Below are positions 54,113-58,317 of a stretch of 64,000 nucleotides of DNA, in pieces. The notes beneath the pieces are model-generated. The model ran no database searches. It was not told the origin of the DNA and saw only the letters and a list, made by a program, of their open reading frames with translations. The translations under genes were made by a program, and so were the position numbers. Where the stretch lies: NCBI GenBank assembly GCA_025965195.1, contig JAOPXK010000121.1:1-64000 (forward strand), in the 5' to 3' direction. Numbering within the stretch: position 1 is the first letter of the stretch; each line of letters begins with the position of its first letter. This DNA comes from Marmoricola sp. (lineage in GTDB: Bacteria; Actinomycetota; Actinomycetes; Propionibacteriales; Nocardioidaceae).

Positions 54113-54145
54113 GGGGCCGGACCGATTACGCATCGGTCCGGCCCC
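54113..54145 (-). terminator. Hairpin terminator of the stress redox operon
   Basis: GGGGCCGGACCGAT (54113-54126) pairs perfectly with ATCGGTCCGGCCCC (54132-54145) around a 5-nt loop, 22 bp beyond the stop of the phytoene-dehydrogenase-like gene. There is no U-run, which is common for actinobacterial terminators. Confidence 0.8.
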
Positions 54146-54148
54146 AAG

Positions 54149-54175
54149 TCATCGCGGTCATCGCGGTCATCGCGC
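54149..54175. repeat. 9-bp tandem repeat TCATCGCGG, three copies
   Basis: TCATCGCGG at 54149-54157 and 54158-54166, then TCATCGCGC at 54167-54175. The third copy contains the stop codon of the flavoenzyme gene, so copy-number change could alter its C-terminal end or the terminator spacing. Confidence 0.6.
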
Positions 54176-55765
54176 CCTCGTGTGAGGAATGAGCCGATGG
54201 AGGCGACTGTGGGCGATCGCCGCGCGAGCCGCGTTCACGCCGGGCGCACCGTGCACGCCGCCGCCGGGATGGGCGGATGCGGACGCGAGGTAGAGACCCT
54301 TGATGGGCGTCTCTGCTCTCCCCAGCCCCGGGACCGGCCGAAAGATGAGCTGCTGATGAAGCTGCGACGTGCCGCCGTTGATCGCCCCACCGATCAGATT
54401 GGAGTCCCGCGCTTCCAGCTCGCGGGGCCCGAGGATCCGTCGGGCCAACACGGTCGACTCGAAACCGGGCGCGAGACGTTCGATGCGCGCTTGCATCCGG
54501 TCGGCGAGGCGTTCGAGGTCATCGGCGTCCCAGCTCCCGGAGATGCCACCCTCGCCGGCATCAGCGACGACGTCCTGCGGGACATGGGTGTAGGCCCACA
54601 GTGCCTCGGTGCCCTTCGGCGACCGGGTGGGATCGGTTGCCGTCATCTGTCCAGCCAGCATGAAGGGCGATCTCGGCACAGCTCCGGAGGCCACCTGGGC
54701 CGTTGCTTCTGCCATCTCCTGCACGGACGTGGCGACGTGGAAGGTGCCGGGCTGATGAACAGGAGGGGATGCCCATGGGAGCGGTGAGCTCAGCGCCCAG
54801 TCCACCTTCACTGTCGAGGGATCCCGCTGGAACCGCTTCATCGCACGCGCTGTCCGGGCGGGTACGTCATCAGGTGCGAGCAGGCCGCCGTAGAGGTGCG
54901 GAGCGACCACGCTCGCGATCACTGCCCGGCCTGCGGGATACCGGTCGCCTCCTGCAGTCCGTACGACGGTGGCGCGCCGGCCCTCGACATCGATCGCGGT
55001 CACCTCGGCGCCGCAGTGGATCTCGCCTCCGCGCGACCGGAAGCGGCGTGCCAGGGCCTCGCTCAGACCACTCGCGCCACCTTCGGGTACCGGGAAGCCA
55101 ACCGTCTGCGCGAGCATCGACATCAACAGGCCCATCAGCCCCGATCCCGGAGAGGTGATCGGGATATCCGAATGGCCGGCGTTTCCGGCGAGAAGGAGGC
55201 GGGGGCCAGGCCCGTGGAAGCGTTGAACGCCGAAGTCAACCACCGGGGTCAACATGGCCTTGACGAACTCGAGACCCCCGACTCGTGGGAGCCGCGCAAG
55301 CGCAGCGAGGCTGGAGCGCACGGGCGGGAACGGGGTCAGCAGCGCATGCACGATCTGTTCACCGATGTCGTCCCACTCGGAACAGAGTTTCAGCCACGCC
55401 TCACCGTCCCCGCGGTGCAGCTGCTCGAGCAGCGAACCGGTGATCTCACGGTCCCGGTGCAAGAGCGCCCAGTCACCGTCAGGAAGGGGGTGTCCGAGCA
55501 CGGCGGGCGCGTGGCGCCACGTCAGTCCGTGCTCCTCGAGACCGAACGAAGTGATCGTGGGTGAGGCAGCGGCGAGTGGGTAGAACGAGCTGAAGGTGTC
55601 GTGGGTGAAGCCTGGATGAACGTCGTCGTCACTGCGTACGGCTCCGCCGATATGGGGCTGCGCCTCCAGGACGATCACGGACCACCCGGCGTCGGCGAGG
55701 TAGTTGGCCGCCACCAACCCGTTGGGTCCGGCGCCGATGACGACCGCATCATGAGTTGAGCTCAT
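54167..55765 (-). CDS. NAD(P)/FAD-dependent oxidoreductase, phytoene dehydrogenase-related
   Basis: 532 residues. The FAD-binding motif VVIGAGPNGLVAANYL is at 8-23, with the Glu of the second strand in VIVLEAQPHIGGAV. The C-terminal GLYLASASAHPGGGVHGAPG is the signature of the CrtI/CrtN-like and PYROXD2-like branch. It could desaturate or isomerise a polyene, but there are no carotenoid genes here. It is the last gene of the stress operon, 49 bp after the SRPBCC gene, with AGAGGA before the ATG. Confidence 0.88.
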   Translation of the reverse strand: MSSTHDAVVIGAGPNGLVAANYLADAGWSVIVLEAQPHIGGAVRSDDDVHPGFTHDTFSSFYPLAAASPTITSFGLEEHGLTWRHAPAVLGHPLPDGDWALLHRDREITGSLLEQLHRGDGEAWLKLCSEWDDIGEQIVHALLTPFPPVRSSLAALARLPRVGGLEFVKAMLTPVVDFGVQRFHGPGPRLLLAGNAGHSDIPITSPGSGLMGLLMSMLAQTVGFPVPEGGASGLSEALARRFRSRGGEIHCGAEVTAIDVEGRRATVVRTAGGDRYPAGRAVIASVVAPHLYGGLLAPDDVPARTARAMKRFQRDPSTVKVDWALSSPLPWASPPVHQPGTFHVATSVQEMAEATAQVASGAVPRSPFMLAGQMTATDPTRSPKGTEALWAYTHVPQDVVADAGEGGISGSWDADDLERLADRMQARIERLAPGFESTVLARRILGPRELEARDSNLIGGAINGGTSQLHQQLIFRPVPGLGRAETPIKGLYLASASAHPGGGVHGAPGVNAARAAIAHSRLHRLIPHTRAR

Positions 55766-55814
55766 CGGACTCTTCCTCTTTCGTCGCTCGGGTCAGGCCG
55801 TGCGATTCCGACAG

Positions 55815-56929: not shown

Positions 56930-57138
56930 GGCCTGAGCCGTTCCGGAAGTGCCTTGTGCGTTGTGTCGCACCACGGCAGGTTCGCGGACTTTCCGCAACG
57001 ACAGATCGCACTTACCGGCCGCGAGGTGTGGTGGATGATCCCGTCGGAGTCGATCACCGCGTGGTTCCCACGAATCAGCAGCGGGCCTCCGGGGCAGATG
57101 ATCTCGTCAGGATGTTCGAACTCACCGATCTCACTCAT
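56926..57138 (-). CDS. CDGSH iron-sulfur domain protein
   Basis: 70 residues. The 3Cys-1His [2Fe-2S] site is complete: Cys46, Cys48, Cys57 and His61 in CRCGKSANLPWCDTTH. Mitoneet-type single-domain proteins pass electrons or transfer clusters and respond to redox state. There is no membrane anchor. It overlaps the iron-enzyme gene upstream and the methyltransferase gene downstream, so it is a likely electron donor to the iron enzyme or the flavoenzyme of this operon. Confidence 0.93.
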   Translation of the reverse strand: MSEIGEFEHPDEIICPGGPLLIRGNHAVIDSDGIIHHTSRPVSAICRCGKSANLPWCDTTHKALPERLRP

Positions 57139-58081
57139 GGGACCAGCCTTCGATCAACCAGGACGCGAACCTGTCTTCGAGGTCGAGACAGGTCTCAACG
57201 CCGAAGACCACATCGTCACGGAGAGCTGGCTCCTCGGCGAGGATGGAGCCACAGATCGTTCGCACGGCGAGCTGTTCATGAACGGCGTCGGCCTCGATGT
57301 GTTCCTCGTAGTAAGCCACCATCTCGGTGGCAAGTCCCAGCCGGGTGAGGCCGGCGGCGATGCGACGAGACGGCATCGAGCTTGTCGCTTCGAACGCGGC
57401 AAGGTGCCCGAGCGCGGCGCCACGCAACCGCCGGTTCAGTCCGAACAGGCTCATCGCGTTGTTCTGCTCGAGCACCTCAACCGGTACGTCGTCGATGTAC
57501 GCGCCGTACTCGGTCCGCAGGCCAGATGCCTCCATCCCGCGGGCGAACAGGTGTGCGTGCAAACGGTTGGGATCACCGCACCCGTACTCGTCGTACTGCA
57601 GCTCCATCAAGGCAGCCTTCGGCCCAGGTGAGAGCCGCGGCACGACCCAGGCGACTGGGTCGGACTCCTTGAGGTGGTAGATCGACCGATACCGCAGCAG
57701 CTCGAGCACCTGCTCCCTGGATGCCTCTCGCTGGACAAAGCTCGCAACGGACGGACCGTCGTGATCTGCGACAAGGGCGAAGAGAGCCTCGTCGAACGGC
57801 TCTTCCAACGCCGGGGTCCTGCGCTGGCGTGAGCGCAGCAGCAATTCGAAGTCCGCCTCCAGCTCGTGTCGGAGTCTCGACGCATCCGGGTGCCACTCGA
57901 GATCCTCGTCGACGTCCTCGAAACCGCGGTAGTGCAACTCGTACAGCGCCCACAGGGCGATCTGAACGTCCTCCCGATCCCGTCGATCGGCATCGAAGAC
58001 AGCCGTCCAGGCCGAGGGTCGTTCCCGAAGCGCGCCGAAGAGGGCCTCGCTGAGCTCACCGCGTGCCTTGGGGACCAGCAT
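57131..58081 (-). CDS. Iron-containing redox enzyme family protein (haem-oxygenase-like fold)
   Basis: 316 residues from the ATG at 58081, with GGAAGGAG upstream. It is all-helical, with candidate metal ligands spread as in haem-oxygenase-like diiron oxidases: Glu160 (LMELQYDEYG), His175/His177 (LHAHLF), Glu231, His261 (YYEEHIEAD), His268 and acidic residues near 297-303 (ETCLDLED). The family includes non-haem diiron N-oxygenases and desaturases, but this branch has no known reaction. It overlaps the CDGSH gene by 8 bp. The exact ligands are inference. Confidence 0.82.
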   Translation of the reverse strand: MLVPKARGELSEALFGALRERPSAWTAVFDADRRDREDVQIALWALYELHYRGFEDVDEDLEWHPDASRLRHELEADFELLLRSRQRRTPALEEPFDEALFALVADHDGPSVASFVQREASREQVLELLRYRSIYHLKESDPVAWVVPRLSPGPKAALMELQYDEYGCGDPNRLHAHLFARGMEASGLRTEYGAYIDDVPVEVLEQNNAMSLFGLNRRLRGAALGHLAAFEATSSMPSRRIAAGLTRLGLATEMVAYYEEHIEADAVHEQLAVRTICGSILAEEPALRDDVVFGVETCLDLEDRFASWLIEGWSHE

Positions 58082-58244
58082 CGGTCGCTCCTTCCCAATC
58101 ACGCTCGGCTCCGACACCGTCCAGCGAATGCCAATCGCCGCGGCAGTCAACGAATCCGCGTCGCTCGAACCCAGCTGATGGCGACGGGTGCGGCGACTCG
58201 GCCGAAGCCTGCGGGTCGGAAGAGGACATGTTCCAAACGGGCAT
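58056..58244 (-). CDS. Small ORF, possible leader gene of the stress redox operon
   Basis: 62 residues. I recognise no family. The ATG at 58244 has the strong ribosome site AGGGAGGG and lies about 40 bases after the predicted start of the SigF-type transcript, so it would be the first gene translated. It ends 26 bp inside the iron-enzyme gene, which would couple the two. The sequence is polar, with one Cys in VDCRGDW and Trp residues near both ends. It could be a coupling leader or a real small protein. Confidence 0.4.
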   Translation of the reverse strand: MPVWNMSSSDPQASAESPHPSPSAGFERRGFVDCRGDWHSLDGVGAERDWEGATDAGPQGTR

Positions 58245-58292
58245 CAGACGACCCTCCCTGGGCTGATGGGCTGATGAGAAGTTGTCCGGCGG

Positions 58293-58317
58293 GTACCCCG
58301 ATGTGCCCAGCTGAAAC
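58293..58317 (-). promoter_or_regulatory. SigF/SigB-like promoter of the six-gene redox operon
   Basis: On the minus strand GTTT (58317-58314), 15 bases, then GGGTAC (58298-58293). It lies 49 bp upstream of the small-ORF start and matches the stress sigma consensus exactly. It is back to back with the promoter of the HAD gene. Confidence 0.72.

What the first reader, a model, noticed from the sequence alone, without database searches (positions are those of the whole stretch)
54113..58317. Six-gene stress-promoter redox operon: small ORF, haem-oxygenase-like iron enzyme, CDGSH, methyltransferase, SRPBCC, phytoene-dehydrogenase-like enzyme
The sequence shows one promoter, gene overlaps of 26, 8, 4 and 4 bp, then a 49-bp gap and a strong hairpin, so these genes are one unit. 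Family knowledge supplies an electron carrier (CDGSH), a possible diiron oxygenase, a flavoenzyme, a methyltransferase and a hydrophobic-ligand fold. Together they read like a small pathway that modifies a lipid or polyene, or repairs a metabolite, under stress. I know of no described pathway with this set.
Basis: partly seen in the sequence, partly recalled or inferred. Interest (0 to 1): 0.78.

Follow-up and report, generated by a model that had tools for sequence, protein, structure and literature searches.

The report
Stress operon pairing iron oxygenase, NEET
A soil actinobacterium carries a stress-type operon whose core, an oxygenase-like two-iron enzyme next to a small iron-sulphur protein, is kept together in many of its relatives, which suggests that the small protein serves that enzyme.

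Summary
The operon is real: five convincing minus-strand genes with the stated overlaps, a SigB/SigF-type promoter-like site, and a strong hairpin behind. The sixth, a small ORF, has no homologue in the loci tested and weak codon bias. The iron enzyme is a heme-oxygenase-like diiron protein (HDO). Its model matches the N-oxygenases HrmI, RohS and SznF best, and all seven residues aligned with SznF's ligands are invariant (80 of 80 pattern-found, 71 of 71 profile-found proteins). The core finding is linkage: in 118 genomes drawn evenly across the class, 45 of 54 orthologues have a CDGSH (NEET) gene within 3 kb, in all orientations; 0 of 10 distant HDOs do, but only 3 of those genomes hold any CDGSH. 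A HemK-like methyltransferase lies within 3 kb in 30 of 54, a GT2-like gene in 9, never both. SRPBCC plus flavoenzyme is a separate pair, usually elsewhere, that joins the core in several lineages. Most likely: a stress-induced HDO served by a NEET partner, with exchangeable tailoring enzymes. Chemistry and substrate are inferred. Seven sampled genomes keep the HDO without CDGSH. My searches of an open-licence library found no description of the pairing.

The parts
58294..58317 (-). SigB/SigF-type promoter-like site GTTT-N15-GGGTA
   Evidence: pattern scan; 6 of 77 related loci have one within 400 bp upstream of the iron-enzyme gene against 11 of 825 other ORFs, Fisher p 0.0018; 9 of 77 have one on the opposite strand of the same stretch
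58056..58244 (-). small ORF, 62 aa, overlaps the next gene by 26 bp; doubtful as a protein gene
   Evidence: no homologue in 80 other loci or in 29 relatives' loci; GC3 0.65 against 0.75-0.79
57131..58081 (-). heme-oxygenase-like diiron enzyme (HDO, PF14518), 316 aa
   Evidence: Pfam 5.5e-54; model pLDDT 95.8; HrmI Z 34.3, 306 residues, rmsd 2.3; seven ligand positions E139 E165 H175 E231 H261 D265 H268 invariant
56926..57138 (-). CDGSH/NEET [2Fe-2S] protein, 70 aa, type 4 like; the only PF09360 match in its genome assembly (98% complete, 200 contigs)
   Evidence: PF09360 1e-13; best PDB match 3TBM = RsCISD, type 4; single genome match
56252..56929 (-). PrmC/HemK-like class I methyltransferase with DPPW motif, 225 aa
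   Evidence: PF05175 4.2e-8; TIGR03534 4.4e-22, below cut-off; motif
55815..56255 (-). SRPBCC / Polyketide_cyc2 protein, 146 aa
   Evidence: PF10604 7e-10; a homologue lies beside the flavoenzyme gene in 21 of 30 loci, window included
54167..55765 (-). CrtO/phytoene-dehydrogenase-like FAD enzyme, 532 aa
   Evidence: PF01593 9.7e-17; NF045689 6.4e-64, far below its cut-off; match at E <= 1e-100 in 39 of 58 genomes, window's included
54112..54146 (-). hairpin with a 15-bp stem behind the last gene, probably the end of the transcript; no T tract
   Evidence: -38.2 kcal/mol, z -6.2
58328..58351 (+). divergent SigB/SigF-type promoter-like site before the HAD hydrolase gene (58389-59057)
   Evidence: pattern scan; HAD family

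Best explanation
The operon encodes a stress-induced oxygenase system (stress control inferred from the promoter-like site and neighbouring genes). The HDO carries a seven-ligand diiron site of the N-oxygenase type and activates O2 (shown: predicted fold, ligand residues, relatives; inferred: metal, O2 chemistry). The neighbouring NEET protein is its dedicated partner and most probably delivers the electrons that reduce the diferric site between turnovers (shown: gene linkage; inferred: electron transfer). The product is then altered by an exchangeable tailoring enzyme, here a HemK-like methyltransferase, in other lineages a GT2-like enzyme (shown: mutually exclusive linkage; inferred: tailoring of the HDO product). 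The SRPBCC-flavoenzyme pair is a second, separately placed module of the same stress response that in this genome has been joined to the same transcript. The likely outcome is an N-oxygenated, methylated or glycosylated small protective metabolite; the substrate is unknown.
For: Linkage: 45 of 54 orthologues (window included) within 3 kb of a CDGSH gene in an even sample of 118 genomes, median gap 78 bp between profile matches, all four arrangements; 0 of 10 distant HDOs linked. Genomes with the HDO have CDGSH in 46 of 53, without it in 20 of 65, p 8e-10, kinship ignored. The window's genome has a single CDGSH match and it is the neighbour. Fold and ligands. Characterised HDOs except FlcD needed an auxiliary reductant as of 2024 (PMC11363339, passages), and one HDO with its own flavin/Fe2S2 partner has been shown (MboA/MboB, PMC13185094, passages). 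Methyltransferase within 3 kb in 30 of 54, GT2-like in 9 of 54, never both; 24, 12 and 0 of 79 in the other set, which partly overlaps. SigB/F-type sigma genes within 6 kb in 11 of 54 (no control made), and SigB/F/G or STAS and RsbW-like genes beside the set in two annotated plasmid records.
Against: Seven class-sample genomes hold the HDO but no CDGSH match, five of them in one family; of the other two, one is a 75% complete genome and one has its HDO gene at a contig end. Outside the class only 9 of 19 HDO genes are linked, and three of four genomes of one family (f49) lack CDGSH: the partner is dispensable or replaced there. The 0-of-10 control is weak, as 7 of those genomes hold no CDGSH at all. 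In 18 of the 45 linked cases CDGSH is on the opposite strand, which argues against obligate co-transcription. 20 sampled genomes have CDGSH without this HDO, so CDGSH has other uses. Known NEET clusters have fairly high redox potentials (recalled), so they are not obvious reductants of a diferric site. Exclusivity of methyltransferase and GT2 could follow from lineage. No substrate clue recurs: dimethylargininase beside the HDO in Kitasatospora was found in 0 of 54 class-sample loci. DtpC, an HDO, lowers H2O2 without a known product.
Confidence: 0.45

Rival explanations
1. A NEET-coupled diiron peroxidase or oxygen sink: the HDO reduces H2O2 or O2 with electrons from the NEET protein, as rubrerythrin does with its own Fe-S site (recalled), and protects stressed or dried cells without making a product.
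For: DtpC, an HDO-domain protein of Acinetobacter baumannii, protects dried cells and limits H2O2, and loses its protective activity when predicted ligand residues are changed (PMC13232832, abstract, section 6, part 1 of the discussion). The promoter-like site and neighbouring sigma genes are of stress type.
Against: Recurrent methyltransferase or GT2-like neighbours (30 and 9 of 54) fit a metabolite better than a peroxidase. DtpC is co-transcribed with katE and its paper holds the word CDGSH 0 times. Orthology of DtpC to this enzyme was not tested.
Confidence: 0.25
2. The NEET protein is an iron or cluster donor or a sensor for the HDO, loading its labile diiron site, and not an electron donor.
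For: NEET proteins can transfer clusters as well as electrons (PMC5859297, passages); a flexible third core helix is reported for several HDOs and folds on cofactor assembly in SznF (PMC11363339, passages). Linkage itself does not tell the two roles apart.
Against: No result here favours metal delivery; other HDOs load iron in vitro without such a partner (recalled).
Confidence: 0.15
3. The genes share only stress regulation: a general-stress island in which unrelated protective genes are collected and sometimes fall into one transcript.
For: SRPBCC and flavoenzyme are a pair of their own and mostly far from the HDO (4 of 32 genomes within 10 kb, by eye); alcohol dehydrogenase, YbdK-like, sigma and GAF-ANTAR genes also recur around (families named by eye); gene order is fluid.
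Against: The HDO-CDGSH linkage (45 of 54, median gap 78 bp) is too tight for a loose island. The reading remains likely for the SRPBCC-flavoenzyme part.
Confidence: 0.15

Closest known systems
N-oxygenase HDOs HrmI, RohS and SznF
   Same: Fold over nearly the whole protein (HrmI Z 34.3, RohS 28.0, SznF 27.4, the last two tied) and the seven-residue ligand set, including the extra glutamate (SznF E281 = E231)
   Different: About 14-23% identity; linked with a CDGSH gene and in stress-type loci, not in a known antibiotic cluster
MboA/MboB of mangotoxin biosynthesis
   Same: HDO with a dedicated redox partner carrying an Fe2S2 cluster (PMC13185094, passages)
   Different: MboB is a flavin plus Fe2S2 reductase; here the candidate partner is a 70-aa NEET protein with no flavin domain. 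MboA's sequence was not compared
DtpC of Acinetobacter baumannii
   Same: HDO domain linked to stress survival; E143 and H153 ten apart, as E165 and H175 here (PMC13232832, section 6)
   Different: Co-transcribed with katE; its paper does not mention CDGSH; sequence not compared here
Type 4 CISD proteins (RsCISD, 3TBM)
   Same: Sequence match over residues 17-64, 3 Cys-1 His motif and Lys after the His
   Different: CDTTH in place of CDGSH; the passages of PMC3174974 and PMC5859297 that I saw give no partner for type 4
CrtO/CrtI-type carotenoid flavoenzymes
   Same: FAD enzyme family match
   Different: Far below the curated cut-offs (216.5 of 1000 bits for CrtO, 110.4 of 238.1 for CrtI); often paired with SRPBCC; carotenoid synthesis genes were not searched for

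Membership tests
HDO (heme-oxygenase-like diiron oxidase/oxygenase) | heme-oxygenase-like helical fold | tested here: met
   model pLDDT 95.8; HrmI, RohS, SznF, FlcD, CADD, BesC and UndA at Z 18-34; heme oxygenase itself about 15.7
HDO (heme-oxygenase-like diiron oxidase/oxygenase) | metal motif E-H-X-H-D/E-H on the core helices | tested here: met
   E165, H175, E231, H261, D265, H268 (plus E139); 80 of 80, 53 of 53 and 18 of 18; motif as given in PMC11363339 section 10, residue assignment by alignment to SznF
HDO (heme-oxygenase-like diiron oxidase/oxygenase) | binds two metal ions and activates O2 | not testable with these tools
   needs purified protein
N-oxygenase HDO (SznF/HrmI/RohS group) | extra carboxylate ligand (SznF E281; role and number recalled) | tested here: met
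   E231 aligned with SznF E281 and a glutamate of HrmI and RohS, invariant
N-oxygenase HDO (SznF/HrmI/RohS group) | N-oxygenation of an amine or guanidine | not testable with these tools
   no substrate known
Type 4 CISD (NEET) | 3 Cys-1 His motif at the C-terminal side of the domain, Lys/Arg after the His | tested here: met
   CRCGKSANLPWCDTTHK in the window; 79 of 79 CDGSH homologues in the window and loci fit a C-X-C...C-X3-H pattern, CDGTH commonest; 3TBM match; type 4 features from PMC3174974 passages. Lys/Arg was checked in the window only
Type 4 CISD (NEET) | binds a redox-active [2Fe-2S] cluster | not testable with these tools
   needs purified protein
SigB/SigF-type stress regulon | promoter of GTTT-N15-GGGTA type | tested here: inconclusive
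   present here but in only 6 of 77 related loci, though enriched over 11 of 825 controls; consensus recalled
CrtO beta-carotene ketolase / CrtI phytoene desaturase | reaches the curated family cut-off | tested here: not met
   216.5 of 1000 bits and 110.4 of 238.1 bits
PrmC release-factor glutamine methyltransferase | reaches the curated family cut-off | tested here: not met
   78.7 of 199.1 bits; motif DPPW in place of NPPY

The most novel reading that the evidence does not exclude
A widespread actinobacterial class of NEET-driven oxygenases: the type 4 NEET protein is the dedicated electron donor of an N-oxygenase-type HDO, and the pair, with a methyltransferase or a glycosyltransferase, makes a so far unknown N-oxygenated stress metabolite. 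This would give bacterial type 4 NEET proteins a partner and this HDO class a natural reductant.
Probability: 0.28. Interest if true: 0.85.

Novelty: new variant of a known kind. Interest (0 to 1): 0.62.

Why it matters
Two open questions meet here. Characterised HDOs, FlcD excepted, needed an auxiliary reductant in vitro (PMC11363339, passages), and MboA/MboB of 2026 'may be the first' dedicated HDO-redox-partner pair (PMC13185094, passages). Type 4 CISD proteins, the main CISD type of Actinobacteria (PMC3174974, passages), have no partner in the passages I saw. Tight linkage of the two across much of the class makes a direct test possible with two small proteins. If the pair makes a metabolite, many actinobacteria share an unseen stress compound; if it destroys peroxide, it works like DtpC and rubrerythrin.

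Tried and rejected
Fusion of HDO and CDGSH: 1 of 89 same-strand neighbouring pairs (some genomes counted twice) reads as one frame (L110, genome G035), but the junction holds a run of seven G and a relative 90% identical keeps two frames. I did not rely on it.

Substrate from dimethylargininase: a neighbour in Kitasatospora, 0 of 54 class-sample loci. Dropped.

CDGSH missed by divergence in the exceptions: a relaxed motif search in eight of the nine exceptional loci (G125 left out) found only the one already known, 7.7 kb away in G149. In five family-f21 loci a different methyltransferase sits beside the HDO.

Spread: 6 of 20 plasmid records were opened. The three actinobacterial HDOs opened that cover most of the query have an annotated CDGSH neighbour; a split Gordonia copy, Vibrio and Rahnella show none within 4 kb, but that gene table is incomplete. 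Other phyla were not sampled.

DtpC was not compared by sequence: I had no copy. A lipid/polyene role was neither supported nor excluded. The GT2-like gene matches PF00535 below its cut-off, so its name is tentative. The methyltransferase profile hits 31 of 53 loci within 4 kb, among them two GT2 loci (L221, L222) at about E 1e-6; I did not count these two as methyltransferase loci.

Rows dropped: L038 (other end of a contig already counted) and L001 (the window) in most counts over loci; two loci with under 350 bp upstream in the promoter count (77 of 79 kept); in the class sample a 41-position fragment in G156 was left out and two pieces in G167 were taken as one gene; outside the class two pieces in G187 were taken as one gene and its region was not fetched. 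The 80 loci are the best of 557 relatives and were found with peptide patterns that hold ligand residues, so I repeated the ligand count on profile-found sets. CDGSH counts differ by method: 45 of 54 by profile, 41 of 54 by tblastn. The flavoenzyme-SRPBCC count covers the 30 loci fetched of 44 matches. The sets share genomes.

Literature: CDGSH with 'heme oxygenase-like' gave 0 papers; CDGSH with 'diiron' gave 7, of which 6 are listed and none is on HDOs by title. Searches gave listings, mostly capped. Subscription papers and preprints are not in that library, so absence from print is not shown.

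Full report
What is there. The families are as named. The GTTT-N15-GGGTA site lies about 50 bp before the small ORF; a divergent site of the same type lies before the HAD hydrolase gene. The hairpin behind the last gene is very stable but has no T tract. The small ORF has neither homologues in the loci tested nor clear codon bias, so it is more likely leader than gene. The window lies in contig C128 of a 4-Mb assembly. Its genus-mate G008 has a contig of the same length (88799 bases) as the Nocardioides pocheonensis contig of L033, so the host is most likely a Nocardioides; that is inference.

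The iron enzyme. Its AlphaFold2 model from 52 sequences has mean pLDDT 95.8. HrmI is first both in Foldseek and in VIA-align (Z 34.3 over 306 residues, rmsd 2.3); SznF and RohS follow (Z 27.4 and 28.0, a tie), then FlcD, with CADD, BesC and UndA further down. A profile search of PDB sequences gives HrmI 7.8e-18, RohS 5.6e-16 and SznF 4.5e-14. In the profile alignment, E139, E165, H175, E231, H261, D265 and H268 fall on SznF E189, E215, H225, E281, H311, D315 and H318 (that these are SznF's ligands is recalled). All seven are invariant in 80 of 80 proteins, the window and 79 loci, and in 53 of 53 and 18 of 18 loci found by profile. Metal binding itself is not shown. The seventh ligand is a mark of N-oxygenating HDOs (recalled), so N-oxygenation is the first chemistry to test, not a result.

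The partner. One search gave 80 loci that resemble the window; 79 were kept after dropping a duplicate, and CDGSH lies within 3 kb in 77 of them. As these were picked by similarity to the window, I used an even sample of 118 genomes of the class: 62 match the HDO profile, 53 with a close orthologue (54 genes, window included), and 10 genes are distant. CDGSH genes were sought in these genomes by PF09360. 45 of 54 have one within 3 kb, median gap 78 bp between the two profile matches, with 20 same-strand downstream, 7 same-strand upstream, 16 opposite downstream and 2 opposite upstream; none of the 10 distant HDOs does, though 7 of those lie in genomes without any CDGSH. CDGSH is present in 46 of 53 genomes with the orthologue and 20 of 65 without (p 8e-10, kinship ignored). 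Against this: seven genomes have the HDO and no CDGSH match, five of them in family f21; one genome has it on another contig and one 7.7 kb off. In other classes of the phylum, 9 of 19 HDO genes in 18 genomes are linked (counted by eye). The linkage is thus strong and old, but not absolute.

The tailoring genes. A HemK-like methyltransferase of one of three subfamilies lies within 3 kb in 30 of 54 loci, and a GT2-like gene, directly behind the HDO, in 9; no locus has both. A profile check agrees apart from two weak hits in GT2 loci, told under Tried and rejected. In the set the numbers are 24, 12 and 0 of 79, and outside the class 1, 6 and 0 of 18 loci fetched. The chance of no overlap is 2e-4 for the class sample and 5e-5 with the 18 loci added, ignoring kinship. 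In the five f21 loci without CDGSH the methyltransferase is of a different subfamily and lies beside the HDO, on the same strand in three and divergent in two; the four that I read carry NPPY.

The second module. The flavoenzyme has a match at E 1e-100 or better in 39 of 58 genomes. In 21 of the 30 loci fetched the SRPBCC gene is beside it, in 12 directly upstream on the same strand. Of 32 genomes with both HDO and flavoenzyme, 4 have them within 10 kb (window included; by eye); so have 7 of 79 loci, each with SRPBCC. Two loci of another family hold SRPBCC, flavoenzyme, HDO, CDGSH and a HemK-like methyltransferase within about 4 kb in another order (L251, L252; a third, L250, is cut by its contig end). 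This repeated joining suggests a shared purpose, at least shared regulation.

Regulation. The strict promoter pattern occurs upstream of 6 of 77 HDO genes, on the opposite strand of 9 of 77, and upstream of 11 of 825 other ORFs in the same loci (Fisher 0.0018 for the first against the last). So most related loci lack it. SigB/F-type sigma genes lie within 6 kb in 11 of 54 loci (no control). Annotated examples show the set beside SigB/F/G, STAS and GAF-ANTAR genes, or beside STAS and ATP-binding (RsbW-like, my reading) genes.

How it probably works. See the best explanation. The literature basis: characterised HDOs but FlcD required auxiliary reductants (PMC11363339, passages and section 10); MboA/MboB may be the first dedicated HDO-redox-partner pair, with MboB a flavin and Fe2S2 reductase (PMC13185094, passages and section 7); DtpC links an HDO to H2O2 control in dried cells (PMC13232832, abstract, section 6, passages, part 1 of the discussion); actinobacterial CISDs are mostly type 4 (PMC3174974, passages). 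One paper draws a CDGSH gene in the neighbourhood of alkB, another diiron monooxygenase, in the Rhodococcus group (PMC11854999, one figure legend). Nothing I saw mentions an HDO-CDGSH pair, and my searches found none.

Verdict. The news lies in the core pair and its exchangeable third partner rather than in the six genes as a set.

Noticed in passing
58389-59057 (+), 59185-59961 (+): Divergent HAD hydrolase with its own SigB/F-type promoter-like site, then a GAF-ANTAR protein; GAF-ANTAR genes recur near the HDO (5 of 54 loci within 6 kb, window included).
   Followed up: partly
59903-62452 (+), 62820-63377 (+), 63412-63999 (-): Molybdopterin oxidoreductase, a DUF6328 protein and a zinc alcohol dehydrogenase (cut by the window end) next to the operon; the dehydrogenase family recurs near the HDO (12 of 54 loci within 6 kb).
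   Followed up: partly
L110:1108-2289: HDO and CDGSH read as one frame in a single-contig genome, with a run of seven G at the junction; not fused in a 90% identical relative.
   Followed up: partly
L206:1881-5939: In Kitasatospora a YbdK ligase and a dimethylargininase gene precede the HDO-CDGSH-HemK2 set.
   Followed up: partly
52406-53878 (-): A 490-aa secreted-looking ORF downstream of the operon without any Pfam or NCBIfam match at E 0.01.
   Followed up: no
L028:11086-12174 and similar places in other loci: A GT2-like gene directly behind the HDO in loci without the methyltransferase: 12 of 79, 9 of 54, 6 of 18; the sets overlap.
   Followed up: partly
PMC11854999, Figure 2 legend: A CDGSH gene is drawn in the neighbourhood of some alkB genes of the Rhodococcus group: possibly another CDGSH gene beside a non-heme diiron oxygenase.
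   Followed up: no
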